Shown here: in pieces, positions 702 through 19,723 of the stretch
Position numbering within the stretch: position 1 is the stretch's first letter
How the letters are laid out: every line of letters begins with the position of its first letter
Assembly (NCBI GenBank): GCA_903913865.1
Contig: CAIWMU010000127.1
Location: forward strand, 1-64,000
From: an uncultured Verrucomicrobia subdivision 3 bacterium
GTDB taxonomy: Bacteria; Verrucomicrobiota; Verrucomicrobiia; Limisphaerales; UBA8199
Direction: 5' to 3'
DNA: 64,000 nucleotides
Made by a program: the position numbers and the translations under genes
Notes under the pieces: generated by a model
Databases searched by the model: none
The model's input: the letters and a program-made list of their open reading frames with translations, nothing else
Told to the model about the DNA's origin: nothing

Positions 702-3632
702 ATGAGAACAAATCGGATGTTTGGTATGGCGCGACGCGCGATGAGGATGATGGGGCGGGTAAGCCTGAAACTGGGGGCAATCCGTGCCTGTGGTGTTGTG
801 CTGGCGACGATGGTTGGCGGGGCCGCCATTATGAGCGCGGCTGAGGCGGTGAGGCCTTTGACCTATGTGGATATTCTGCACCAACTCACCGATCTGGACC
901 GTCTTGGGACGCTGCAGGACGGGTGCAGGGGCGGTCTGTTTTCGAGTTGGGACCGGGTTTCACACACCGTCTGGGGAGCCAACGGCGATGCAGGCCACTA
1001 TTTGGACGAAAAGCAGGGTGGCGAGGCTGTGATGATGGACCTGGATGGCCCGGGCGTGATCTACCGGATCTGGTCGGCGAATCCCATGGGGACGATCCAT
1101 ATCTATCTGGATGGGGCGCAGACGCCGAGCTATTCCTGGAGCTTCCCGGATCTGTTCGATGGCAAACTGGCGCCGTTCGTCAAACCGCTGGTTTATCGCC
1201 GGGATGGGCCGCAATCCGCCTCGGACTGTTACCTGCCGATACCGTTTGCAAAACACATCAGAATCACAGCCGACAAGGCGCACGCACAATATTATCACTT
1301 CAATTATGTAACCCTCCCGAAGGATCAGGTTGTGTCCAGTTTCCACCTGCCCCTGTCTCCGGAGGAGCAGGCTGCGCTGGATGCGGCAGTGGATGCGTGG
1401 TCCCATCCCGGCCGGGATCCCAAGCCGCAGATGGCGGGGCAGAAGACGATTCACAAGACGGTGACGATCGCGCCGGGCAAGGTGGTGGAGCTGTGCAACC
1501 TGCGGGAGACGGGGGTGATTCGGGCGATCCGTGCGCGGGTCATTTCCGATCAGCGCTACGCGTGGCGGAAGCTGGTGTTGAAAGGAGTCTGGGACAATGC
1601 GAAGTGGCCCCAGGTGCTCACCCCGCTCGGGCCTTTCTTCGGGTTTGACTGGCAGGCCGTCGAATATGGTTCTGTGCCAGCGGGCTGCAGGGATGGGCAG
1701 GCCTACCAGTATTTCCCGATGCCGTTCAGGAAGTCGGCAACGCTGGCCATCCAAAGTTTTCTTGAGGCTCCAGCCACGGTCGAGTTTGAAATCGAGTGGG
1801 CACCCCGGGAACGGTTGCCAGAGGATTCGACCTATTTTTATGCAAGATGGCGGCATGCGCGTGATCTGGTGCGGTTCGATTATGCGTTTCTGGAGACAGC
1901 GGGCAGGGGGCACTTTGTGGGAGTCTCGATGCCGATAGACCATCCGCTCGATGGGTGGTGGGGCGAGGGGGACGAGATGGTGTGGGTGGATGACGACGAT
2001 TTCCCGCCCTACATCGGGACGGGTTCGGAGGACTACTTCGGGGATGCCTGGGGCATCCGCTACCTCTCAGGGCCAAGCTTCGGGGCATCATACCAGACCG
2101 GGCACAGGACCGCCAACTACCGGTGGCACTTCATGGACGTCATCCCGTTCAGCAAGCGGATGCGGATGACGATTGAAAACTATGGACCAAACGGGCAGGG
2201 GCCGACCGGTCAATACGATTATAGTTCCACCGCATTCTGGTATCAAACCGAGGTGACGCCGCCGTTTGAAAAGCTCAAAGGGGTCCGGTTCACCGGGGGG
2301 AGCGATCCTGCGGCGGTGCCTGTGAAGATGGAATATGACCCGGGAGTCTTTTCACCGATCACCCGTGAGAACATTCGCACGTATGGCCGGGGGATCACCT
2401 TCGCCCGGCAGGCGGAAGTGCTTCTTGCCGATTCCGTGAAGCATGGCAAGGGGAGGATTGTGACGGATGCACTGTGTCCGTATGAATACGACCGGGAGCA
2501 GGCCGTGGCGTTTGGCAGGGTGGAGGCGGGTGCAACCCTGGCGGCGTTCACTCTGTCCGTCCAATCGAATGGTGTCTATCACCCGCGCATTCACATGGCA
2601 CCACTGACCGGTGTGGCGGAATTGTCGCTGGAGATTGCCGGAAAGGTGCTGCCGGTCGTGGGGCGGCCATCCCTGCAGGAGATCGAACTTCAGGGAGTCG
2701 TTCTTGCAAAAGGTGACCACCCGGTCCGTCTTGTTGCCCTGAAGGCGGGTGAGGCCATTTTTGATTGCCTTCAATTGCAGCCTGCAAAGCGCGTGGCTGA
2801 TGCGATCGAAGCGGAGGATGTGGCTGTGGTTGGGACCACGGGCGATGCGCCGTTGCCCAAGGTGGGTGATCCGGTCCAGGGAGTCAGTGCCGGGAGGTTC
2901 CTGGAGTTTCTGCCCACAAAGGCCGGGCAGGGGGCTGTTTTGAAGCCCGGCAAGCGCCCCGCGCTGCCGTATGTGCTGGGTGTGCGCCCACTCGTCGGAC
3001 CTGATGCAGCGATCATACAGGGGTTTGTGGGAGGCAAGGCAATCGGGCCACAGTTCGATCTCCATGCCGCCGCTGCCGCCCCGGGGCCATCCATCCTGCC
3101 GCTGGGATCTGTCCCCTCCGGTGCCACGGAGATTGAGATCCGTGTGGTGGGCAGAAATCCCCTCTCAACCGGTTGGAAGGTGGGGCTGGATTACTTCCGC
3201 TGGGAGCCGTGCCTGCTGGGGCCTGGAACGATGGAGGGCATCTGGGCCGGGGTGATTGGCCGGCAGGATTGCAATTACCAAGGGCAGGATCTGGGAGAGA
3301 GCTACTCAGGCGGACACCAGTTCTGGGTCATGCCCTGCAATCTCAATTCCTGGATCGATGTTGCGATTGAGATTCCGCAATCAGGGACTCGCGAGTTCGT
3401 CGTCAAATACACCAAATCATGGGATTATGCCCGGATACAGGCGTTTCTGGATGGCAGCCCGCTCGGAGCCGAGGTGGACACCTATGCGCCGACCGTTGTC
3501 CCGGATGAACCCACTTTGCTTGGGCAGCGGGATCTGACTGCCGGGCGGCACGTGCTGCGGTTCCAGGCGGTGGGTCACAACACCGCTTCCCAGGGATATT
3601 TGATGGGGATCGATCATGTGATCGTGAAGTAG
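702..3632 (+). CDS. Secreted DUF2961-family (GH172-type) carbohydrate-active protein
   Basis: 976 residues. An N-terminal signal sequence (basic stretch, hydrophobic core around residues 26-46, cleavage after AAEA) indicates export. Residues ~60-560 form a DUF2961 domain: GPGVIYRIWSANP near the start and GTGSEDYFG at 439-447, whose Glu443 lies in the family's conserved acidic motif. Characterised DUF2961 (GH172) members act on fructofuranosyl or D-arabinofuranosyl linkages, so a glycosidase or transglycosylase role is plausible; the substrate cannot be read from the sequence. Residues ~600-976 look like beta-sandwich accessory domains, possibly carbohydrate-binding. The ATG at 702 is used because the signal peptide follows it; the upstream AGGG is a weak ribosome site. 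It stands alone ahead of lnt. Confidence 0.85.
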   Translation: MRTNRMFGMARRAMRMMGRVSLKLGAIRACGVVLATMVGGAAIMSAAEAVRPLTYVDILHQLTDLDRLGTLQDGCRGGLFSSWDRVSHTVWGANGDAGHYLDEKQGGEAVMMDLDGPGVIYRIWSANPMGTIHIYLDGAQTPSYSWSFPDLFDGKLAPFVKPLVYRRDGPQSASDCYLPIPFAKHIRITADKAHAQYYHFNYVTLPKDQVVSSFHLPLSPEEQAALDAAVDAWSHPGRDPKPQMAGQKTIHKTVTIAPGKVVELCNLRETGVIRAIRARVISDQRYAWRKLVLKGVWDNAKWPQVLTPLGPFFGFDWQAVEYGSVPAGCRDGQAYQYFPMPFRKSATLAIQSFLEAPATVEFEIEWAPRERLPEDSTYFYARWRHARDLVRFDYAFLETAGRGHFVGVSMPIDHPLDGWWGEGDEMVWVDDDDFPPYIGTGSEDYFGDAWGIRYLSGPSFGASYQTGHRTANYRWHFMDVIPFSKRMRMTIENYGPNGQGPTGQYDYSSTAFWYQTEVTPPFEKLKGVRFTGGSDPAAVPVKMEYDPGVFSPITRENIRTYGRGITFARQAEVLLADSVKHGKGRIVTDALCPYEYDREQAVAFGRVEAGATLAAFTLSVQSNGVYHPRIHMAPLTGVAELSLEIAGKVLPVVGRPSLQEIELQGVVLAKGDHPVRLVALKAGEAIFDCLQLQPAKRVADAIEAEDVAVVGTTGDAPLPKVGDPVQGVSAGRFLEFLPTKAGQGAVLKPGKRPALPYVLGVRPLVGPDAAIIQGFVGGKAIGPQFDLHAAAAAPGPSILPLGSVPSGATEIEIRVVGRNPLSTGWKVGLDYFRWEPCLLGPGTMEGIWAGVIGRQDCNYQGQDLGESYSGGHQFWVMPCNLNSWIDVAIEIPQSGTREFVVKYTKSWDYARIQAFLDGSPLGAEVDTYAPTVVPDEPTLLGQRDLTAGRHVLRFQAVGHNTASQGYLMGIDHVIVK

Positions 3633-3692
3633 TCTGCGGGGCGTGTGCCGGGGTGATCTTGCGTTTGCAGCCTGATAAGGCAAGCTGGGAGC

Positions 3693-5387
3693 GTGACGAT
3701 CGCCCGACTCAAAGACCTGCTCGCCAGCCGCATGACCTTTGCGGTTCTGGCCGGGGTTTTACTGGCATGTGCCTATGAAAAGTTCGGGGTTGCCGGGTTC
3801 GCCTGGGTGGCGCCCGGGGCACTGGTGGCCGCAGCCTTGGGGTTGCGGGGGTGGTCTGCCTTCCGGATCGGATACTTTGGCGGACTTGCCTTCAATCTCA
3901 TCCTGCTCCACTGGCTTTTGCTGATTCCCTACCGGTGGCATGGGATCCCGTTCGGCCCCGCCCTGGGGTGGCTTTGCCTGAGTGCCTTTCTCGCGCTTTA
4001 CCCGGCGATCTGGGTCTGGATGATTTGCTCCATTGCACCTGTCCATTCTGGCGATCTCCACAATTCCAATGCCTGGGGGGCGTTGCGGAGTTTGGTGGCG
4101 AGCCGGTGGAGCGCGAGGGCCCGCTGGGGTTTGATGGGCGCGGCTGCCTGGGTGGGGTTCGAGATGATCCAGGCGAGGCTGCTCTCCGGCTTTCCCTGGA
4201 GCATTCTTGGCATCACCCAGTATCGGATGCTGCCCCTGATTCAATGCGCTTCAGTGGCCGGTGTGTATGGGGTTTCGTTCCTGCTGGTATGGACATCCCT
4301 TTGCGGCCTCTGCGCGGTGGGGAAGTCGGTGCTGGCGGGGGGGAGGTCTTCCTGGGCGGCGGACATGATCCTGCCGGTGATGGTTGTCGCGGTGGTCTTT
4401 GCGCAGGGGTTTCGGACGTTGCGACTGCCGGAAGGGCCCGGAAGGACATGGCGCGTCCTGCTGGTGCAGCCGAGCATCCCCCAGAACCTGATCTGGGAAT
4501 CGGCCAATGATGATGCCCGTTTTGCCGAACTCCTGGCGCTTTCGGAACAGGGGATGACGAACCATCCGCAGGCCGTCATCTGGCCCGAGGCGGCGGTTCC
4601 CAAACTGGTGCGTTTGGACGAGAAGACCCTGGAGTCCGTCACCGGATTTGCGAAGAGGCACCGGGTCTGGATGATCCTTGGATCCGATGACGCCGAGCCC
4701 CCGGAGCGAAGACCCGGGCCCGGGGATCCGCAGGCCATTTTCCGGAACAGCAGCTTTCTGGTGGCGCCGGATGGGGTTCTGCAGGACCGCTATTGCAAGC
4801 GCAACCTGGTGATCTTTGGCGAATACATCCCGCTGGTGCGGTGGATGCCGTTTTTGAAGTGGTTCACACCGATTGATGGGGGATTCACGCCGGGGGATCG
4901 GCCTGTGACATTTCACCTGGAGGATCCGCCGTTGCGGGCATCGGTGATGATCTGCTTTGAGGATGTCTTCCCCCACCTGGCGCGGGAGTATGTGGCACAG
5001 GACACGGATGTCCTTGTGAACATCGCGAATAACGGCTGGTTTGGGGAAAGTGCGGCGCAATGGCAGCATGGGGCTGCAGGAATCTTTCGCGCCGTTGAGA
5101 ACAACATCCCCCTCGTGCGCTGTGGAAACAACGGGTTGAGCTGTCGGGTGGACCGGAGTGGTGCGCTGCGGCAAATCTTCCGGGATGCAGGTTCCGGCAG
5201 CGTCCATGGAAAAGGCACCTTGCTGATCGATGTGCCCATAGCCCTCTCCCGTGGGGAGCCCACCTTTTACAACCGGCATGGGGACGTGTTCGGATGGGCC
5301 TGTGTCGGCCTGACGGGAACGCAGTTGCTGGCATGGCTGGCAGCAAAACGCCGCCGGAACGGCGGCGTTGAAACTGGCGGAAATTGA
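3693..5387 (+). CDS. lnt: Apolipoprotein N-acyltransferase
   Basis: Transfers the third acyl chain to the N-terminal cysteine of lipoproteins in the inner membrane, completing lipoprotein maturation. 564 residues: an N-terminal multi-helix membrane part (~1-255, including GFPWSILGITQYR and the GVYGVSFLLVW segment), a C-N hydrolase domain (~265-520) and a last membrane helix. The catalytic triad is visible: Glu299 (WPEAAVPK), Lys369 (YCKRNLVIFGEY) and Cys421 (VMICFEDVFP), with spacing close to the E. coli enzyme. Starts at GTG with GGGAG seven bases upstream. A 9-bp perfect hairpin (5347-5369) lies inside the last codons. Convergent with trxB. Confidence 0.95.
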   Translation: MTIARLKDLLASRMTFAVLAGVLLACAYEKFGVAGFAWVAPGALVAAALGLRGWSAFRIGYFGGLAFNLILLHWLLLIPYRWHGIPFGPALGWLCLSAFLALYPAIWVWMICSIAPVHSGDLHNSNAWGALRSLVASRWSARARWGLMGAAAWVGFEMIQARLLSGFPWSILGITQYRMLPLIQCASVAGVYGVSFLLVWTSLCGLCAVGKSVLAGGRSSWAADMILPVMVVAVVFAQGFRTLRLPEGPGRTWRVLLVQPSIPQNLIWESANDDARFAELLALSEQGMTNHPQAVIWPEAAVPKLVRLDEKTLESVTGFAKRHRVWMILGSDDAEPPERRPGPGDPQAIFRNSSFLVAPDGVLQDRYCKRNLVIFGEYIPLVRWMPFLKWFTPIDGGFTPGDRPVTFHLEDPPLRASVMICFEDVFPHLAREYVAQDTDVLVNIANNGWFGESAAQWQHGAAGIFRAVENNIPLVRCGNNGLSCRVDRSGALRQIFRDAGSGSVHGKGTLLIDVPIALSRGEPTFYNRHGDVFGWACVGLTGTQLLAWLAAKRRRNGGVETGGN

Positions 5388-5446
5388 TCCGGCATGCGAC
5401 CCATCTCCCGGTTTGCGGCAGGGTGGGGGATGGCGTTCGCCCGTGA

Positions 5447-6373
5447 TCAGGCTTTGGCGGTCAGGAAGCGTTCCGCCTCAATGGCAGCTGCGCAGCCCAT
5501 TCCGGCGGCAGTGATGGCCTGGCGGTAAACCCGGTCCGCACAATCCCCGGCGACGAAAACGCCGGAAATATTCGTGGCGGCACCCTGGGTGGGAATCACG
5601 TAACCCGCCTCATCCAGAGTCACCTGGCCGTTGAACACCTGGGTGTTGGGCACATGGCCGATGGCGACAAACAGCCCGGCGCAGTCGATGACAGTTTCCG
5701 AGTTGGTGTTGACGTCCTTCACTCTCACACCGGTGACCTTGTCCTGTGCAACGTCGAGCACCTCGGTGACGACGCTGTTCCAGACCGGCTTGATCTTGGG
5801 GTTTGCCAGAACGCGTTCGGCCATGATTTTTGAGGCCCGGAGGGAGTCGCGCCGGTGGACGAGGTAAACAATGGACCCAAAGCGTGTGAGATACAGGGCC
5901 TCCTCGCAGGCGGAGTCTCCACCGCCGACCACCACGAGGGGTTGGTTGCGGAACATGGGCAGGGCGCCGTCGCACGTGGCGCAGTAGGTCACCCCCTTGT
6001 TCTCCAGCTTGTGCTCGCTATCGAGGCCGATGTGCCGATGGCCCGCGCCGCTGGCGATGATCAGGGTTTCCGTCTCCACCGGCTCACCGTCCACGACGAG
6101 CTTGAAGGGCTGTTTGGAGAGATCGACGGAATCCAGGGTGGCGAAGGTGACACGCGCGCCGAACTTCTCCGCCTGCTTTTGCAGGCGGGACATGAGTTCA
6201 TAACCGTCGATCCCATCGGGAAAGCCGGGAAAGTTTTCCACCGTGCTGGTTGTGGTGAGGAGTCCGCCCGGCTGGCGGCCTGTGAGAACAAGCGGATTGA
6301 GGTTTGCCCTGGCGGTGTAAAGTGCCGCGGTCAAACCTGCGCAACCCGATCCAATGATGACGACCTTTTCCAT
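5447..6373 (-). CDS. trxB: Thioredoxin-disulfide reductase
   Basis: NADPH-dependent flavoenzyme that reduces thioredoxin in the cytosol. About 308 residues from the ATG at 6373 (a start 12 bases upstream, at 6385, is also in frame). Shows an N-terminal FAD-binding GSGCAGLTAAL motif, the redox-active Cys131-Ala-Thr-Cys134 followed by DG, the NADPH-binding GGGDSACEEALYL motif, and the C-terminal FVAGDCAD FAD motif. Length and domain order match low-molecular-weight bacterial TrxB. It stands alone between lnt and the EamA transporter, with only a 42-bp gap to the latter's end at 6416, so co-transcription with the transporter is possible. Confidence 0.95.
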   Translation of the reverse strand: MEKVVIIGSGCAGLTAALYTARANLNPLVLTGRQPGGLLTTTSTVENFPGFPDGIDGYELMSRLQKQAEKFGARVTFATLDSVDLSKQPFKLVVDGEPVETETLIIASGAGHRHIGLDSEHKLENKGVTYCATCDGALPMFRNQPLVVVGGGDSACEEALYLTRFGSIVYLVHRRDSLRASKIMAERVLANPKIKPVWNSVVTEVLDVAQDKVTGVRVKDVNTNSETVIDCAGLFVAIGHVPNTQVFNGQVTLDEAGYVIPTQGAATNISGVFVAGDCADRVYRQAITAAGMGCAAAIEAERFLTAKA

Positions 6374-6415
6374 GATGGCACGCAACGTAGATCCTCAGTG
6401 GGACCTTTGCAAGTG

Positions 6416-7348
6416 CTACTCAGGCCGTCCCGATGCACTTCCGTTCGCAGGTGCCGGGGAGGGTGGCGGCGGATTCTCTCCCGCCGGACCTGAAAGTCCA
6501 AGGGCGAGCCCCAGTGCGATGGCGATACTGCCGGTCAGGTGCCCCCAATGGAGCGGTTCCTGCAGGCAGACGGCGGCAATGATGACCCCGAACACCGCCT
6601 GGGCGAAGACCGTCAGCGCAGCGACATTCACCGGGCATTCCCGGATGACGATGAACCAGACCGAATAGCCGATGACGGTGCAGATGATGGCGAGGGCGAA
6701 CAGGAGGACCCAGGCCTTTCCCGGCAGGTGTGTGGCGGCGGAGAGGGTTGTCCGGCCATCGATCAGGAGGTTGATCAGGGTGCCCGAGAAGAGGCCGAGG
6801 GCGAGCATTCTCATCAAGCTGACTCCGCGGACCACCAGCGGCTTCCCCATCACCGTATAGGCGGCCTCGCAGATGAAGGAGGAGACGAAGATCAGGCTGG
6901 AGGCCATGCTGGTCCACTGGAAGTCGGAGCGGTAAACCCCGTGGAGAAGGCCGACGCCGAGAAGCCCCATGCCGAATCCGGCCGCTCTTCTGGGGCCGAT
7001 CCGTTCCCGGAGGAACATGGCCGCAATAACCGAGGTTACCAACGGTTCAAGGGCCATGAGGACGGAGGAATTACCGGCGGTGCCGAGGTAATTCCCGTAA
7101 ACCTGAAGACGCTGGCCGATCACGAACAGGACCAGCCCCATGGCGCAGGAGATGACGAAGTCCTTCCCCTTGGGGGTGGGCCCGGGGAGCCAGGGCCAAA
7201 GAAAAAGAAAGATCACCGCAGCCAGGCCGAACCGCAGGGTCACGATCCCGCCCGTTTCGAGGGCGGGTCCAATGACCTTGTAGGCGGCGTAGATCGCCGC
7301 CCAGCAGAAGTTCATCGCCAGCAACAAAATGAGGTGTGAGGCTTTCAT
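6416..7348 (-). CDS. EamA/DMT-superfamily transporter
   Basis: 310 residues with ten hydrophobic segments in two similar halves, the layout of the drug/metabolite transporter superfamily (EamA, RhaT-like exporters). The first helix starts directly after the chosen ATG (MKASHLILLLAMNFCWAAI). Such proteins typically export small metabolites or amino acids; the substrate is not inferable. The C-terminus is Pro/Ser-rich and soluble. An in-frame start 51 bases further out adds a polar stretch with no homology cue, so I prefer 7348. It points away from the macA operon, sharing a 126-bp divergent upstream region. Confidence 0.85.
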   Translation of the reverse strand: MKASHLILLLAMNFCWAAIYAAYKVIGPALETGGIVTLRFGLAAVIFLFLWPWLPGPTPKGKDFVISCAMGLVLFVIGQRLQVYGNYLGTAGNSSVLMALEPLVTSVIAAMFLRERIGPRRAAGFGMGLLGVGLLHGVYRSDFQWTSMASSLIFVSSFICEAAYTVMGKPLVVRGVSLMRMLALGLFSGTLINLLIDGRTTLSAATHLPGKAWVLLFALAIICTVIGYSVWFIVIRECPVNVAALTVFAQAVFGVIIAAVCLQEPLHWGHLTGSIAIALGLALGLSGPAGENPPPPSPAPANGSASGRPE

Positions 7349-7430
7349 CCAAACCAAACCGTGCGGGCGCAGGGAATAGGTTTGCGGGCCTTGTGGCAAG
7401 CTGATTCGGGTGGATTATTTTGATAACTGT

Positions 7431-7459
7431 TTGCGCCGGGGTGGTGGGTCACTTACAAT
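7431..7459 (+). promoter_or_regulatory. Putative sigma-70 promoter of the macA-like operon
   Basis: TTGCGC (7431-7436) and TACAAT (7454-7459) are separated by 17 bp, close to consensus. Transcription would start near 7466, only about 9 nt before the ATG at 7475, so the message would have almost no leader. No Shine-Dalgarno-like sequence is present there. Confidence 0.55.
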
Positions 7460-7474
7460 TGAGCTTCTTATTTA

Positions 7475-8707
7475 ATGAAAAAACTGTTCACGTTCGCGGT
7501 GGTGGTTGCTCTTGGATGGGGTGCTTTCACATTCTGGCAGCATTGGGACCAGTTCAAGCCAAAGCCGGAGGTCCCCACCCGGGTGAGCACCGCTTTGGCG
7601 GAGTTGCGTGACATCAGTTTTGCGGTGAATGCCGCAGGGGAGATCAGCCCGGCGGAGCAGGTTTCTGTGCGCCCGGAGATCAATGGAAAAATCGAGCAAC
7701 TGCCGGTGGATCTGGGGGACAAGGTCAAGAAGGGGGATTTGCTCTTCAAGTTGGATGACAAGGAGTTGCAGCAGCAGCGCTCCTCCAGCCTGACCGACAT
7801 TGAACGGTCCAAACTGAGCCTCACAAAGGCGGATCGTGACCATGCCCGTGCCAAGCAGCTGCTTGAGGCGAAGTTGATTGCCCAGGAACTCTATGATGAT
7901 ACCAAGACCGCCTTTGAACTGGCGAAAAACTCCCTGGAGCGTTCGGACAGGGAACTGGCGATCATCGAGGAGCGTTTGACCAAAACCGAGGTGCGGGCCC
8001 CGTTTGACTGCACCGTGCTGACACGGCCGGTCTCCATCGGCCAGGCGGTTTCCGGTTCGGGCGGGTTCAACAGCGGCACCGAAGTGCTTTCGATAGCGGA
8101 CCTGAATTCCATGATCATCAATGCCCACGTCAATCAGGCGGATGTGCCCCGGTTGAAGGGGGATCAGGTTGTGGAGGTGACGATTGAGGCTGTGGCCGGT
8201 TTGAAGGTGAACGGGACCGTAGAGCGGATCGCCCCCCAGGCGAGCATCAAGAACAACATCAAGGGCTTTGCCGCACGGATCGTGCTTCGCAACGTGGATG
8301 CCCGGGTCAGGCCCGGCATGACCGCGAACATCAAGATTCCAGTGGCCAGCGCGGACAACGTGACTTCAGTGCCCCTTTCCGCCGTGTTCACTGAACGCAA
8401 CCCGGACAATGGTGTTGTGGAACGGTATGCATTCGTCCAGCAAGGAGCCAGTTATGAGAAACGGACTGTGAAGGTGGGTGTGTCGGACTTCTTTTATGCT
8501 GAAATCCAGGAGGGATTGAAGCCCGGTGATGTGGTATCCTTGGAGATGCCGAAGGAGGAGAGGGAAAAGAAAAAGAGCCAGATGGGATCCAAAGTCCCGG
8601 GAGCCCCGGGGCGCCCGGGCACAAACGCGACCGCAGCGGGCGCGGCACCGAAGGCCCCATCCGGCGGGGGCACTCATGGCAGTGGTTCCGGCGCAAGTCC
8701 TCATTAA
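7475..8707 (+). CDS. MacA/HlyD-like periplasmic adaptor of an ABC export system
   Basis: Membrane-anchored adaptor linking an inner-membrane ABC exporter to an outer-membrane channel. 410 residues: N-terminal anchor helix (residues ~1-20), barrel-sandwich hybrid halves (ISPAEQVSVRPEINGKIEQL near 60-80 and VRAPFDCTVLTRPVS near 170-190) flanking a coiled-coil hairpin (~100-170), then beta-barrel and membrane-proximal domains, and a flexible Gly/Pro/Ala-rich tail after ~360. Followed 30 bp later by the ATPase and two permeases, so it is the first gene of a four-gene export operon. No outer-membrane TolC-like gene is in the window. Substrate unknown: macrolides, peptides, lipids or siderophores are all possible for the family. 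Confidence 0.9.
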   Translation: MKKLFTFAVVVALGWGAFTFWQHWDQFKPKPEVPTRVSTALAELRDISFAVNAAGEISPAEQVSVRPEINGKIEQLPVDLGDKVKKGDLLFKLDDKELQQQRSSSLTDIERSKLSLTKADRDHARAKQLLEAKLIAQELYDDTKTAFELAKNSLERSDRELAIIEERLTKTEVRAPFDCTVLTRPVSIGQAVSGSGGFNSGTEVLSIADLNSMIINAHVNQADVPRLKGDQVVEVTIEAVAGLKVNGTVERIAPQASIKNNIKGFAARIVLRNVDARVRPGMTANIKIPVASADNVTSVPLSAVFTERNPDNGVVERYAFVQQGASYEKRTVKVGVSDFFYAEIQEGLKPGDVVSLEMPKEEREKKKSQMGSKVPGAPGRPGTNATAAGAAPKAPSGGGTHGSGSGASPH

Positions 8708-8737
8708 GCAGTCATTGGCCCACAAAACGAACACGCC

Positions 8738-9481
8738 ATGGCTCTCGTTGAACTGCGGAACGTCAGCAAGATTTACCAGCTCGGAGGCGAGGAAATCCGG
8801 GCGTTGGACGATGTGTCGCTGGACATCGAGTCGGGCGAGTTCATCTCCATCATCGGCCCCTCCGGCAGTGGCAAATCCACCCTGATGCACATCCTTGGCT
8901 GCCTGGATTCGCCGTCCAAGGGAACGATCTGTCTGGATGGGGTGATGATTCAGGACGCCTCCGCGAGGCAGTTGGCCGCCATCCGGAACCGGAAGATCGG
9001 TTTCGTATTCCAATTTTTTAATCTGCTTCCAAAGCTCAACGTCACCCAAAATGTGGAACTGCCCATGATCTACAGCGGGATCGGCAGTGCGGAGCGCAAG
9101 AAGCGGGCTCTGGCGGCTCTGGAGTCTGTGGACCTTGTCAACCGTGCGAAGCACCGTCCCAGCCAGCTTTCCGGCGGTCAGCAGCAGCGGGTGGCCATCG
9201 CCCGGGCGCTGGTGAACGATCCGAAGATCATTTTTGCCGACGAACCCACGGGTAATCTGGATTCCCACACAGGGGATGCCATCCTCACGCTGTTCCGCCG
9301 GCTCAGCCAGAGCGGGCGCACCATTGTCCTGGTTACGCACGATCCCGAGATCGCCGCCGTGACACCGAGGCGGATCGAGATTCGAGACGGGAAGATTGCG
9401 GTCAAGGTGGATCTCACACTGGCCGGCCTTGCGGGTGGCAGGCGGAATCCGGACGGTGCCGAGCCGCCCAAACCGGCATGA
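8738..9481 (+). CDS. MacB-type ABC transporter ATP-binding protein
   Basis: 247-residue nucleotide-binding subunit that powers the neighbouring permeases. Walker [10 protein letters not shown] (40-48), ABC signature LSGGQQQR (144-151), Walker [10 protein letters not shown] with Asp168-Glu169, and the H-loop VLVTHDPE are all present. It belongs to the LolD/MacB/FtsE group of ATPases, which act with FtsX-fold permeases. Unlike canonical MacB, the ATPase is a separate polypeptide. The stop overlaps the next start by 4 bp (ATGA at 9478), implying translational coupling. Confidence 0.95.
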
Positions 9482-15104: not shown

Positions 15105-15188
15105 GGGCCAACGGCCCGGCTTCATACCAGCCTATGGCATCGCCATAGGAATTGGGTTTTGGAATAACCGGAGGGCTGAAGGCCCGGC
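15105..15188. repeat. 84-bp structured repeat, copy 1
   Basis: Matches 19505-19588 at about 78 of 84 positions. Composed of three palindromes: GGCCAACGGCC, CCTATGGC-ATC-GCCATAGG, and GGGCTGAAGGCCC. The substitutions in the other copy include one in the loop of the middle hairpin, so the stem is preserved. The two copies lie 4400 bp apart on the same strand and enclose the duplicated cassette. Confidence 0.85.
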
Positions 15189-15852: not shown

Positions 15853-16335
15853 ATGAAAAAGATAATGACTATTGCCGCCCTGGCCGTGGGCTGGGTGACG
15901 GTTTCTCAGGCGCAATTTGCCCTGGTGAGTGCGAGTTTGCGTCCGGCAGGGGCTTTTGTCCCTGTTTCGGGCACAAACCAGCAGTTCCGGCTGGAGGATT
16001 GCCGGATAGATCCGTTGGCGGGAGCGGTGGCTCCGGCGGGGTCTAATCGCTTCCAACTCACCGCAACACTAAATCGCATTTACACCGATCCCAACCGGTC
16101 CGGTCCGAGGTTGGGGATCTCTCTTGATCCGGGCTACCCTCTTGGCTTCTGTAATGTAAAGTGGACCGAGGATGAGATCACACGTGGGTATCACCTACAA
16201 TCCTCCGGCAGTGCCAGTGCCCCTAATTGGCAAAACCTGCCCGTGCAAATGAATGGGGGTATGCGTTCCGCGAGCTTCCCAAGCAGTCAGGTCTCCACGC
16301 AGCGTCTTCAGTTTTTCCATCTCGTCAAACCTTGA
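15853..16335 (+). CDS. Small secreted protein of the duplicated cassette, copy 1
   Basis: 160 residues; not a family I can name. A signal peptide is clear (MKKIMTIAALAVGWVTVSQAQ). The mature part is short and beta-rich with two cysteines (EDCRIDP and GFCNVKW), ending in a module with conserved Trp and a terminal FFHLVKP (YHLQSSGSASAPNWQNLPV...), similar in plan to the FYR-ending modules of other secreted proteins here. The ATG at 15853 is chosen because the signal peptide begins there; the frame is open further upstream without cues. The collagen-like gene begins 20 bp downstream, and the two-gene unit recurs 1996 bp later. Confidence 0.8.
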   Translation: MKKIMTIAALAVGWVTVSQAQFALVSASLRPAGAFVPVSGTNQQFRLEDCRIDPLAGAVAPAGSNRFQLTATLNRIYTDPNRSGPRLGISLDPGYPLGFCNVKWTEDEITRGYHLQSSGSASAPNWQNLPVQMNGGMRSASFPSSQVSTQRLQFFHLVKP

Positions 16336-16355
16336 ATCTCAACACAAAAAATAGA

Positions 16356-17642
16356 ATGAAAATGAAAACAATCCTCCTTGGCCTCGGAGTCGCACTTCTG
16401 GCCGAACTGGCAAGTGCCCAGACTACAGCTTTCAACTTCACAGGTCAGTTGTCCGATGGTGGCTCTCCCGCCAATGGCAACTACGACTTCAACTTTAGAA
16501 TCTATTCCGTTTCATCGGGAGGTTCCGAGGTTGCGCCTGCAATTTCTGCTCCTTCCACACCGGTCAGGAACGGGGTGTTTTCCTCGATGCTTGATTACGG
16601 TGCCAATGTGTTCACCAATGGGGGCAATCTGTGGGTCCAGGCTGAGGTGCGGACAGCGGGCACCAGCGGGGCGTATGCCCCTCTTGGCCGCCAGCAACTC
16701 ACTCCGGTGCCGTTTGCCCTTTATGCCCTCAAAGGTGTGCCCGGTCCTCAAGGACCAGCAGGTGCCCCGGGTGTCGCTGGGGCACCTGGTCCGCAAGGCC
16801 CTCCCGGAACTGGTGATGCGGCAGGCTTGACCAATTACGCGCAATTGAATGTTCCGGATACCGCAGCTCAGGCTGGAGCCGTGCCGACTGTGGCGGGTGG
16901 GTTCATCGTCGGGGTAACGGTCACAAGCCAAGGGAATGGCTATGTGACGAATCCTATCGTCAATGTTACTGACGCGACCGGAAGCGGGGCCGTGCTAACG
17001 CCGATCGTGGTCGGCAGCAAAATTGTGGGGATTACCGTTTCAAACCCGGGGAGCGGTTACTCTGCCAATCCAATTATTTCCATTTCCGCACCACCGAAAT
17101 ATACTAGGCAGACGTTTACTGGTGACAATCAGTTCACAGGAAACAATGCGATTACTGGCCAGTTTACTGGCGATGGTGGCGGTTTGACGAACCTGTTTGA
17201 CTGGGTTGCGGTAAGTAACTGCGTGATGGTATTTCCAACGCTTGTTTTACCTCTTGCGAATTTTAACGCTGGTGTGGATGTCGTTGCTCAAGTGAATCTC
17301 CCCATTGGTGCAAGGCTCAAGGGGCTTTCTCACCAGTTCAGAGTAAAAATGCCGGATCCTAAAAGCTCTGTCGCGTATGTATGCCAAACTGTTGAACTCG
17401 GGTGCAGTTCGCCAACCGGCAAAACAATAGTCGCTACTTCCAGTCCTCCATGGTACCAAGAGGTATCAAACGCGTTTCAAACGATTTCCATGCACAAGAG
17501 TATCGAAAATGTCAATGTGGAGTCTGGTCAAAGCTATTGGGTACATTTTGTGCTAGACCAGGGAAATGGGTGGGGTGAACGCTACGACATTGATTACATA
17601 GCTGTGGAATACGTTACTCCCATCCTCAAGCATACCCGGTAA
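16356..17642 (+). CDS. Collagen-like secreted modular protein, copy 1
   Basis: 428 residues. Signal peptide MKMKTILLGLGVALLAELASAQ; then an N-terminal module starting FNFTGQLSDGGSPANGNYDF (~25-125) that precedes collagen or tail-fibre-like parts in many Verrucomicrobiota and Planctomycetota proteins. Nine Gly-X-Y triplets run from residue 127 to 153 (GVPGPQGPAGAPGVAGAPGP...). Two GxGY..NP repeats follow (~175-250). From about residue 250 the sequence is unique: a ~170-residue C-terminal domain with three cysteines and lower GC coding DNA. A trimeric surface fibre with a C-terminal binding head is a reasonable inference, not demonstrated. Confidence 0.82.
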   Translation: MKMKTILLGLGVALLAELASAQTTAFNFTGQLSDGGSPANGNYDFNFRIYSVSSGGSEVAPAISAPSTPVRNGVFSSMLDYGANVFTNGGNLWVQAEVRTAGTSGAYAPLGRQQLTPVPFALYALKGVPGPQGPAGAPGVAGAPGPQGPPGTGDAAGLTNYAQLNVPDTAAQAGAVPTVAGGFIVGVTVTSQGNGYVTNPIVNVTDATGSGAVLTPIVVGSKIVGITVSNPGSGYSANPIISISAPPKYTRQTFTGDNQFTGNNAITGQFTGDGGGLTNLFDWVAVSNCVMVFPTLVLPLANFNAGVDVVAQVNLPIGARLKGLSHQFRVKMPDPKSSVAYVCQTVELGCSSPTGKTIVATSSPPWYQEVSNAFQTISMHKSIENVNVESGQSYWVHFVLDQGNGWGERYDIDYIAVEYVTPILKHTR

Positions 17643-17848
17643 TCTGGCGTTTTGGAGATGCTAATACCCAGCGAGGATCAAAAAACAGAAGGTAAAATCT
17701 CTCCCTGAACCTAGCGTTTTGGCGAGTGGGCGGTGTCGATCCGGCCCGGGAAGGCGAGGATTGGGTAGGTTGGGCTGTGTTCCGGGTGATCGTAGCCCCC
17801 GATCCAAGGCTTGGGGTTTGCCCAGTAGTGAGTGAAAATGGTAAGAAC
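17643..17848. other. Spacer between cassette copies
   Basis: 206 bp. The last ~40 bp (GGGGTTTG...AATGGTAA before the ATG) resemble the sequence before copy 1, giving the upstream edge of the duplicated block. The rest shares no clear similarity with the region before copy 1. Confidence 0.55.
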
Positions 17849-18331
17849 ATGAAAAAGATAATGACTATTGCCGCCCTGGCCGTGGGCTGGGTGACGGCTT
17901 CTCAGGCGCAATTTGCCCTGGTGAGTGCGAGTTTGCGTCCGGCAGGGGCTTTTGTCCCTGTTTCGGGCACAAACCAGCAGTTCCGGCTGGAGGATTGCCG
18001 GATAGATCCGTTGGCGGGAGCGGTGGCTCCGGCCGGGTCAAATCGCTTCCAACTCACCGCAACACTAAGTCGCATTTACACCGATCCCAACCGGTCCGGG
18101 CCAAAGTTGGGGATCTCACTTGATCCGGGCTATCCTCTTGGCTTCTGTAATGTAAAGTGGACCGAGGATGAGATCACACGGGGTTACCACCTACAATCCT
18201 CCGGTAGCGCCAGTGTCCCTAATTGGCAAAACCTGCCCGTTCAGGCGAATGGGGGTATACGTACCGCCAGTTTTCCAAGCAGTCAGGTCTCCACTCAACG
18301 TCTTCAGTTTTTCCATCTCGTCAAACCTTGA
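17849..18331 (+). CDS. Small secreted protein of the duplicated cassette, copy 2
   Basis: 160 residues, differing from copy 1 at only about ten positions (for example GWVTAS for GWVTVS, LSRIYTD for LNRIYTD, RTASFPS for RSASFPS). Same signal peptide, same two cysteines and same FFHLVKP end. Near-identity of both protein and DNA indicates a recent duplication or ongoing gene conversion. Function unknown. The downstream collagen-like gene again begins 20 bp later. Confidence 0.8.
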   Translation: MKKIMTIAALAVGWVTASQAQFALVSASLRPAGAFVPVSGTNQQFRLEDCRIDPLAGAVAPAGSNRFQLTATLSRIYTDPNRSGPKLGISLDPGYPLGFCNVKWTEDEITRGYHLQSSGSASVPNWQNLPVQANGGIRTASFPSSQVSTQRLQFFHLVKP

Positions 18332-18351
18332 ATCTCAACACAAAAAATAGA

Positions 18352-19488
18352 ATGAAAATCAAAACAATCCTCCTTGGCCTCGGAGTCGCACTTCTGGCCG
18401 AACTGGCAAGTGCCCAGACCACAGCTTTCAACTTCACAGGTCAGTTGTCCGATGGTGGCTCACCCGCCAATGGCAACTACGACTTCAACTTTAGAATCTA
18501 TTCCGTTTCATCGGGAGGTTCCGAGGTTGCACCTGCAATTTCTGCTCCTTCCACACCGGTCAAGAACGGGGTGTTTTCCTCGATGCTTGATTATGGTGCC
18601 AATGTGTTCACCAATGGGGGCAATCTGTGGGTCCAGGCTGAGGTGCGGACAGCGGGAAGTGCCGGGGCTTTCGTGGCCCTCGGTCGCCAGCAACTCACTC
18701 CGGTGCCTTTCGCCCTTTATGCCCTAAAGGGAGTGCCTGGACCTCAAGGGCCAGCAGGCGCCCCGGGTGCTGCCGGAGCCCCTGGACCACAGGGGCCTCC
18801 CGGAACAGCAGAAACGGCTGGTTTGACCAATTACGCGAAATTGAATGTTCCGGATACTGCCGCTCAGGCCGGAGCTGTTCCGACTGTGGCAGGTGGGTTT
18901 ATTGTAGGCGTGACCGTCACTAACCAAGGGAACGGCTACGTGACGAATCCTGTGGTCAATGTTACTGACGCGACAGGAAGCGGAGCCGTGCTGACGCCGA
19001 TCGTCGTTAGCAGCAAAATTGTCGGGATTACTGTTTCAAACCCGGGGAGCGGCTATTCTGCGAATCCAACCATTTCCATTTCCGCACCACCGAGATATAC
19101 GAGGCAGACGTTTTCGAGTGATAATACATTTACAGGGACCACTGTTTTCGCGGGGCCGGTCGTTGGGGTGGTTCCAGCCTTTTCAACACCAACAGCTGTA
19201 GCAGTGGAGACTACCTACCAGGCGAATACTGCGGGGTTTTTGTGGGGAACGATGAACGTTGAAAATCGAGTGATTAATGGAAACTGGGTGTCTGGGGCTG
19301 CTACCATTTCACTCGGCGGGAGTCCGGCTGCGCTGGGGCAATATGTGTGCGCAACGGGCATTACTCCTAGCACTGGGTCTAGCCATAGTGTTCCGGTCTG
19401 TGTTCCGATTGGTAAGTCTATGTATTATCGGGTGACTGGTGTAAACTATTCAGCAACTTTATTTTTCACGCCGTTGACCCAGAATTAG
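18352..19488 (+). CDS. Collagen-like secreted modular protein, copy 2
   Basis: 378 residues. The first ~250 are nearly identical to copy 1: signal peptide, GQLSDGG module, nine-triplet Gly-X-Y stretch from residue 127 (last triplet GTA), and two GxGY repeats. After YTRQTF the sequence departs completely. The C-terminal ~125 residues (TYQANTAGFLWGTMNVENRV... ending LTQN) share nothing with copy 1 and carry two cysteines (YVCATG, VPVCVP). The conserved shaft with an exchanged tip suggests modular variation of a binding domain. A structured repeat follows 16 bp after the stop. Confidence 0.82.
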   Translation: MKIKTILLGLGVALLAELASAQTTAFNFTGQLSDGGSPANGNYDFNFRIYSVSSGGSEVAPAISAPSTPVKNGVFSSMLDYGANVFTNGGNLWVQAEVRTAGSAGAFVALGRQQLTPVPFALYALKGVPGPQGPAGAPGAAGAPGPQGPPGTAETAGLTNYAKLNVPDTAAQAGAVPTVAGGFIVGVTVTNQGNGYVTNPVVNVTDATGSGAVLTPIVVSSKIVGITVSNPGSGYSANPTISISAPPRYTRQTFSSDNTFTGTTVFAGPVVGVVPAFSTPTAVAVETTYQANTAGFLWGTMNVENRVINGNWVSGAATISLGGSPAALGQYVCATGITPSTGSSHSVPVCVPIGKSMYYRVTGVNYSATLFFTPLTQN

Positions 19489-19504
19489 GAAACGTGGACC
19501 TTGT

Positions 19505-19588
19505 AGGCCAATGGCCCGGCCCCATACCAACCTATGGCACCGCCATAGGAATTGGGTTTTGGAATAACCGGAGGGCTGAAGGCCCGGT
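19505..19588. repeat. 84-bp structured repeat, copy 2
   Basis: About 93% identical to 15105-15188, with CCTATGGC-ACC-GCCATAGG as its central hairpin. Same orientation as copy 1. Together they bracket the duplicated cassette. Confidence 0.85.
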
Positions 19589-19723
19589 GTCATAATGTGG
19601 ATTCGTGGCCGGAACCGATGGATCGAGCCTTCAGCCATCAAACCGTTTCAATGTCCAAATTCCTGGGTCGGTAGCCCAGGCGGGTATGGTTCGCACCTTC
19701 GGTGCTGAAAAGGGAAGTCGGGA

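What the first reader, a model, noticed from the sequence alone, without database searches (positions are those of the whole stretch)
15853..19488. Tandem two-gene cassette with conserved shafts and fully exchanged C-termini
The unit (160-residue secreted protein, 20-bp gap, collagen-like protein) occurs twice, 1996 bp apart. The small proteins differ at about ten positions and the first ~250 residues of the collagen-like proteins are nearly identical, yet after YTRQTF the C-terminal 170 and 125 residues share nothing. The unique part of copy 1 is also noticeably richer in AT. This is what a surface fibre with a swappable tip would look like: a conserved signal, a GQLSDGG module, Gly-X-Y trimer shaft, and variable head. 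The small partner, always first and nearly invariant, could be an assembly or anchoring factor. I do not know a described system that pairs these two proteins.
Basis: partly seen in the sequence, partly recalled or inferred. Interest (0 to 1): 0.78.

Follow-up and report, generated by a model that had tools for sequence, protein, structure and literature searches.

The report
Collagen-like fibre with swappable tip
A bacterium, probably of the Verrucomicrobiota, carries two side-by-side copies of a two-gene unit that makes a small secreted protein and a collagen-like fibre; the two fibres share the same stem but end in unrelated tips, and the same gene pairing recurs in distant relatives, so this looks like a modular surface fibre whose business end is exchanged by recombination.

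Summary
Two copies of a small-protein/fibre gene pair lie 1996 bp apart; small proteins differ at 7 of 160 residues, fibres match over about 255 residues, tips are unrelated. The fibre is signal peptide, N-module, short collagen stretch, Gly-x-Gly-Tyr shaft, QTF/FTG linker, head. I found the unit six times in five genomes of four families of the order. A fibre of the same N-module subtype always follows the small gene; four of the six contain collagen. The same shaft carries at least three head types. Synonymous divergence between the tandem copies is a mosaic (dS 0 to 0.97) with its main step at fibre codon 101, fitting gene conversion plus head exchange. Corrections: between species the small protein is only 21-36% identical (66% within one genus), so not invariant; and fibres with this N-module and shuffled C-termini are common in the order (191 of 313 genomes), often beside a distantly related small protein. 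Most likely it is a trimeric secreted surface fibre with a co-expressed anchoring or assembly partner; trimerisation, location and partner role are inferred. New variant of a known kind.

The parts
15853..16335 (+). small secreted partner, copy 1 (160 aa; signal peptide MKKIMTIAALAVGWVTVSQAQ, C-terminal W...LQSS...FFHLVKP half)
   Evidence: purifying selection against copy 2 (dN 0.023, dS 0.167); relatives in G087, G188, G019, G318
16356..17642 (+). collagen-like fibre gene, copy 1 (428 aa)
   Evidence: Pfam Collagen sub-threshold
16356..16736 (+). signal peptide and N-terminal GQLSDGG...LTPVPFALYAL module, copy 1
   Evidence: profile A2: 191 of 313 genomes of the order at E<=1e-15
16734..16811 (+). 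Gly-X-Y stretch, about 26 residues, copy 1
   Evidence: Pfam Collagen residues 127-152, E 0.0016, below the gathering score
16866..17099 (+). Gly-x-Gly-Tyr repeat shaft, copy 1
   Evidence: PHROG virion structural protein matches to residues 172-256; profile A5 in 96 of 313 genomes
17100..17177 (+). YTRQTF...FTGDGGGLTN linker, last block with any similarity to copy 2
17178..17642 (+). head 1 (about 154 aa), AT-rich, no convincing relatives found
17849..18331 (+). small secreted partner, copy 2 (160 aa)
18352..19488 (+). collagen-like fibre gene, copy 2 (378 aa)
   Evidence: Pfam Collagen residues 127-153, E 0.00031, sub-threshold
19096..19167 (+). YTRQTF... linker, copy 2
19168..19488 (+). head 2 (about 106 aa), unrelated to head 1, similar to the head of the G318 fibre
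   Evidence: no similarity to head 1; 29% identity, E 2e-6 to the G318 head
15106..15187 (+). copy of an interspersed repeat lying upstream of the tandem cassette
   Evidence: 94% identical to 19506-19587; repeat family has 57 matches in the genome
19500..19620 (+). second copy of the repeat, just after copy 2, direct orientation, with stem-loop CCTATGGCACCGCCATAGG

Best explanation
Each unit encodes a secreted fibre and a co-expressed secreted partner. Shown by sequence: both proteins start with a signal peptide; the fibre is N-module, collagen stretch, GxGY shaft, linker, head; the small gene directly precedes the fibre gene in all six instances; heads differ on a common shaft; the tandem copies are a patchwork of homogenised and diverged blocks. 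Inferred: the fibre is a homotrimer whose C-terminal head points outward and binds a surface or glycan; the N-module holds it in the envelope or matrix; the small protein acts on the N-module or N-terminal shaft as an anchoring or assembly factor, which is why it goes with the N-module subtype and not with the head. Head diversity arises by tandem duplication, replacement of the 3' end by recombination in or upstream of the linker, and gene conversion that keeps the 5' part alike.
For: Anatomy. Pairing in G000 x2, G087, G188, G019 and G318, with a 4-bp overlap of the two genes in G087, G188 and G318 and 14-20 bp gaps in the others. Two of the foreign genomes were found from the small protein and two from the fibre, so the link holds from both sides. 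The four best N-module matches (E below 1e-69) and the next (G019, 1e-44) have the partner; the 26 lower matches fetched and read lack this subtype. Same shaft with different heads: head 1, head 2, G019 head, G318 head. dN/dS is about 0.1 in both genes, so both copies are under constraint. Synonymous mosaic: permutation P 0.0002, four segments by BIC with breaks at small codon 61, small codon 150 and fibre codon 101. Heads are AT-richer. Wider relatives with the same N-module or shaft end in peptidase S74 chaperone, FGE-sulfatase, RCC1 or Kelch domains, i.e. a scaffold that carries exchangeable C-termini; S74 is the trimerising chaperone of phage tail spikes (established knowledge).
Against: No experimental or structural support for trimerisation, localisation or binding. 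AlphaFold models failed (head 1 mean pLDDT 39.8; small protein 43.9, only its C-terminal half at 54-74; no significant fold match). The collagen stretch in the window copies is only about 26 residues and sub-threshold in Pfam. The partner's role rests on gene order alone. G087 and G188 are one orthologous locus, so independent genomic contexts are four (G000, G087/G188, G019, G318). The G318 N-module is broken once in the assembly.
Confidence: 0.6

Rival explanations
1. Ordinary tandem duplication followed by divergence: the C-termini simply drifted apart and no module exchange took place.
For: Tandem arrangement in one genome; weak DNxFTG similarity continues about 15 codons past YTRQTF; divergence rises toward the 3' end.
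Against: The block next to the head is under purifying selection (dN 0.055, dS 0.65) yet the heads differ in length and show no similarity. Head 2 resembles the head of a fibre in another family (G318, E 2e-6) more than its own tandem twin. Both heads have lower GC than the shaft. dS is not uniform.
Confidence: 0.15
2. The fibre is a tail fibre or spike of a prophage or tailocin, and the head is its receptor-binding tip.
For: Shaft residues 172-256 match PHROG virion structural and baseplate families, and cyanophage structural proteins match by tblastn; collagen-like prophage fibres with recombined modules are known (PMC3368898).
Against: Both proteins have signal peptides by eye, which tail proteins lack. 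The neighbours are cellular genes (MacB/FtsX, GDSL lipase, RF-1-like protein, YmdB-like, XseA-like) with no phage structural gene seen. No relatives of the small protein or heads in viral contigs. In G087 and G188 the pair sits next to sugar-transaminase, acyltransferase and glycosyltransferase-like genes.
Confidence: 0.05
3. A polymorphic-toxin type system: the variable C-termini are toxins and the small protein is a chaperone or immunity protein.
For: Conserved N-terminal part with variable C-terminal domain and a small neighbour gene.
Against: The small gene lies before, not after, the variable end and does not change with it between the tandem copies. It is secreted like the fibre. The heads match no family in Pfam, NCBIfam or PHROGs.
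Confidence: 0.05
4. The pair is a secreted matrix or capsule component, with the small protein as a second structural subunit rather than an anchor, and the heads as polysaccharide-binding domains for that matrix.
For: G087 and G188 copies lie in a polysaccharide-biosynthesis-like neighbourhood; the G019 fibre has an insert between its collagen blocks that resembles a carbohydrate-binding module by eye (Pfam gave only Collagen for that protein).
Against: The window copies are not in such a cluster; nothing separates this from surface display by sequence.
Confidence: 0.15

Closest known systems
BclA-BxpB (ExsFA) of the Bacillus cereus group exosporium (PMC10470788)
   Same: A collagen-like trimer whose N-terminal part is fixed by a small (167-aa) all-beta partner, with a C-terminal globular head outward. 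This is the best 'works like' analogy for the partner role.
   Different: BxpB is a spore basal-layer protein, not a protein with a secretion signal encoded directly before the fibre; no sequence relation turned up in the PDB search. Resemblance of roles is inference.
Streptococcal Scl1/Scl2 (PMC8968730)
   Same: Collagen-like surface fibre with conserved and variable globular parts; the variable domain differs between types.
   Different: Variable domain is N-terminal and the C-terminus carries the wall anchor, the reverse order; no partner gene is described there.
Legionella Lcl (PMC11162425)
   Same: Gram-negative, secreted; N-terminus for surface attachment, collagen stalk, C-terminal trimeric head binding glycosaminoglycans.
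   Different: Head is conserved over 97% among strains; no co-transcribed partner in the passages read.
EHEC prophage collagen-like proteins EPclA-D (PMC3368898)
   Same: Modular collagen fibres with recombined domains and a C-terminal trimerisation domain.
   Different: Phage tail fibres; different N- and C-domains (PfN, PfC).
Fibre proteins with a TYQGxL...VPFALYA N-module and S74, FGE-sulfatase, RCC1 or Kelch C-termini in the same order, often beside a small dWSxIxGGG...FFRL protein
   Same: Homologous N-module and shaft; small secreted neighbour distantly related to the small protein here (hhalign probability 94.9%).
   Different: Different N-module subtype (TYQG instead of GQLxDxG), usually larger proteins, small partner on either side; no name or description found in the libraries searched.

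Membership tests
Bacterial collagen-like surface proteins | Gly-X-Y repeat able to form a triple helix | tested here: inconclusive
   Window copies: about 26 residues, Pfam E 0.0016 and 0.00031, below the gathering score; relatives G019 and G318 pass it clearly (E 1.9e-14 and 7.3e-21).
Bacterial collagen-like surface proteins | Secretion signal | tested here: met
   By eye on the translations: MKMKTILLGLGVALLAELASAQ and MKKIMTIAALAVGWVTVSQAQ; no signal-peptide program was available.
Bacterial collagen-like surface proteins | Trimer and surface exposure | not testable with these tools
   Needs biochemistry and microscopy.
Order-wide N-module fibre family (unnamed; profile A2) | Homologous N-terminal module after the signal peptide | tested here: met
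   the own genome alone has 13 matches at E<=1e-15.
Small dWSxIxGGG...FFRL partner family (unnamed; profile A4) | Homology over the whole small protein | tested here: inconclusive
   hhalign probability 94.9%, E 4e-8, 111 columns; the dWSxIxGGG motif itself is absent.
Prophage tail fibre | Lies in a phage structural gene cluster | tested here: not met
   Neighbours are cellular genes.
Polymorphic toxin | Toxin domain at the C-terminus with downstream immunity gene | tested here: not met
   No toxin family match; the small gene is upstream and does not vary with the head.
BclA-BxpB type pair | Small partner binds the fibre N-terminus | not testable with these tools
   No complex prediction available.

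The most novel reading that the evidence does not exclude
This order of bacteria has a general, undescribed surface-display system in which a small secreted FFRL-type protein is the dedicated dock or assembly factor for a fibre with a conserved N-module, and the outer end is exchanged freely (S74, FGE-sulfatase, RCC1, Kelch, and here small unrelated heads on a collagen/GxGY shaft) by duplication, recombination near the linker, and gene conversion of the 5' part.
Probability: 0.35. Interest if true: 0.7.

Novelty: new variant of a known kind. Interest (0 to 1): 0.52.

Why it matters
Collagen-like fibres with a variable tip are known from a few pathogens and phages. Here the same plan appears with a conserved partner gene in an order represented largely by draft assemblies, and two tandem copies catch head replacement and 5' homogenisation in one genome. 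If the partner is the dock for the N-module, a large set of uncharacterised secreted proteins of this group (N-module in 191 of 313 genomes, often several copies) gains a testable function.

Tried and rejected
Searching the small protein as a single sequence in GTDB contigs and viral contigs found nothing; only profiles and searches from the fibre side reached its relatives. A weak head-1 match in G074 (E 7.9e-4) was rejected: it lies in unrelated short ORFs. Heads had no match in PHROGs, nothing convincing in the PDB by sequence and none in viral contigs. AlphaFold of head 1 and of the small protein gave low confidence; the Foldseek list has no match at E<=0.001 and was not used. The sister species G001 lacks the cassette at this locus but carries two other large genes there (DUF1501-like and PSD1-like by eye), so a clean empty site could not be defined. 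The flanking direct repeats were considered as an excision or insertion device; the family has 57 matches in the genome and none at the G001 locus, so no claim is made. No paper describing the pair was found; absence from an open-access library is not proof. A coarse look for sigma-70 promoters and terminators was not informative.
Full report
CHECK OF THE OBSERVATION. The window holds two copies of a two-gene unit on the + strand: small gene 15853-16335 and fibre gene 16356-17642; small gene 17849-18331 and fibre gene 18352-19488. The register is 1996 bp and the gap inside each pair is 20 bp. DNA homology spans about 1.34 kb at 91% identity, from some 40 bp before the small gene to about 15 codons after YTRQTF. 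The heads (154 and 106 residues) show no similarity. The small proteins differ at 7 residues.

ANATOMY. Both proteins begin with a signal peptide (read by eye). The fibre has an N-module (GQLSDGG ... LTPVPFALYAL), about 26 residues of Gly-X-Y (sub-threshold in Pfam), a shaft with Gly-x-Gly-Tyr repeats that matches virion structural PHROGs and cyanophage structural proteins, a linker (YTRQTF..DNxFTG), and the head. The C-terminal half of the small protein is a W...LQSS...FFHLVKP stretch; weak matches of the small-protein profile elsewhere hit mainly this half, mostly at the ends of larger proteins.

HOW OFTEN THE PAIR OCCURS. In the window's own genome the small protein occurs only in these two copies, while about a dozen other places share the fibre's N-module or shaft. 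Profile and single-sequence searches found full-length relatives of the small protein in G087 and G188, and in both the next gene is a fibre with the same N-module subtype but with a repeat stalk without collagen. Searching from the fibre side, the best foreign matches were again these two and then G019. G019 has a divergent small protein 14 bp before a fibre with two collagen stretches, the same shaft and linker, and another head. G318, found by its shaft, has a small FFRL protein whose gene overlaps by 4 bp the start of a collagen fibre with the same shaft and a head related to head 2. Its N-module is interrupted once by a frame change in the assembly. The G318 small protein scores 17.4 bits against the profile of the others, while the best of 2000 shuffles scores 7.7. 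So the pair stands in six instances, five genomes and four families; G087 and G188 are the same locus. The other N-module matches fetched, nearly all of the TYQG kind, lack this small protein.

EXCHANGE OF HEADS. On one type of shaft there are head 1 (copy 1), head 2 (copy 2) with a relative in G318 (29% identity, E 2e-6), and the G019 head, which has no similarity to head 1. The heads in the window have GC 47.3% and 50.2% against 56% in the shared part.

MOSAIC DIVERGENCE. Synonymous divergence is 0 in small-gene codons 1-60, 0.31 in 61-155, 0.05 in fibre codons 1-100, 0.97 in 101-155 and 0.51 in 156-250. The longest run without a synonymous change has permutation P 0.0002. A segmentation of third-position differences is best by BIC with four segments and breaks at small codon 61, small codon 150 and fibre codon 101; the BIC margin over two or three segments is small, but the step at codon 101 is strong in every model. 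dN/dS is about 0.1, so both copies are kept functional. The simplest reading is an older duplication, 3' replacement, and later gene conversion of 5' blocks. Which copy received foreign DNA is not determined.

THE WIDER CLASS. The N-module is present at E<=1e-15 in 191 of 313 genomes of the order and the shaft at E<=1e-10 in 96 of 313. Fibres with this shaft end in peptidase S74, FGE-sulfatase, RCC1 or Kelch domains. A small secreted dWSxIxGGG...FFRL protein occurs in 66 of 107 genomes. Among 30 of its loci, 9 have a detected N-module fibre next to it and at least 6 more follow a gene ending in the S74-type coiled coil (the latter judged by eye). Profile comparison links it to the small protein here (hhalign probability 94.9%). 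So pairing of a small secreted protein with an N-module fibre is a general habit of this order, and the window's unit is a divergent branch of it. The order was not named by the tools; from gene content I think it is in Verrucomicrobiota (own judgement). Two of the relatives carry database titles 'Proteobacteria bacterium'.

GENOMIC SETTING. Neighbouring genes are cellular. In the sister species G001 the flanking genes are conserved but the cassette is absent and two other large genes stand there. Two direct copies of an interspersed repeat (57 matches in the genome) bracket the cassette; whether they matter is unknown.

MECHANISM. I think most likely that the fibre is a secreted trimer displayed at the cell surface, the N-module and small protein hold or assemble it, and the head binds a target. 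Shown: sequence anatomy, pairing, head difference, mosaic. Inferred: trimer, display, binding, partner role. Structure prediction did not help. The nearest working analogy for the partner is BxpB, which fixes the N-terminus of the collagen-like BclA (PMC10470788); nearest for a variable collagen fibre are Scl (PMC8968730), Lcl (PMC11162425) and the E. coli prophage collagens (PMC3368898).

VERDICT. A real and fairly interesting modular fibre unit; new variant of a known kind. Caveats: small numbers, many of the genomes are fragmented draft assemblies, two of the five genomes were found through the fibre and then inspected for the partner, and function is inferred.

Noticed in passing
window 15106-15187 and 19500-19620: Interspersed intergenic repeat of about 115 bp with a stem-loop; 57 matches in the genome, several in close inverted pairs, no Rfam match in the window. 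Two direct copies bracket the tandem cassette.
   Followed up: partly
L047 (G001:C89), between the RF-1-like gene and the ymdB-like gene: The sister species carries two large genes (DUF1501-like and PSD1-like by eye) where the window has the fibre cassette; flanking genes are conserved.
   Followed up: partly
L027 (G000:C98), 1584-4889 and 5074-8433, minus strand: Another tandem pair of N-module fibres (1101 and 1119 aa) that, unlike the window's pair, share the same C-terminal end.
   Followed up: no
L030 (G000:C238), 7091-9009: N-module fused to an FGE-sulfatase (formylglycine-generating-enzyme-like) domain, followed by a small dWSxIxGGG...FFRL protein.
   Followed up: partly
L075 (G188:C452) and L032 (G087:C42): The pair lies beside transaminase, acyltransferase and glycosyltransferase-like genes, suggesting a link with polysaccharide synthesis.
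   Followed up: no
L077 and L078 record titles: Two genomes of this order are titled 'Proteobacteria bacterium' in the public record, which looks like a mislabel.
   Followed up: no
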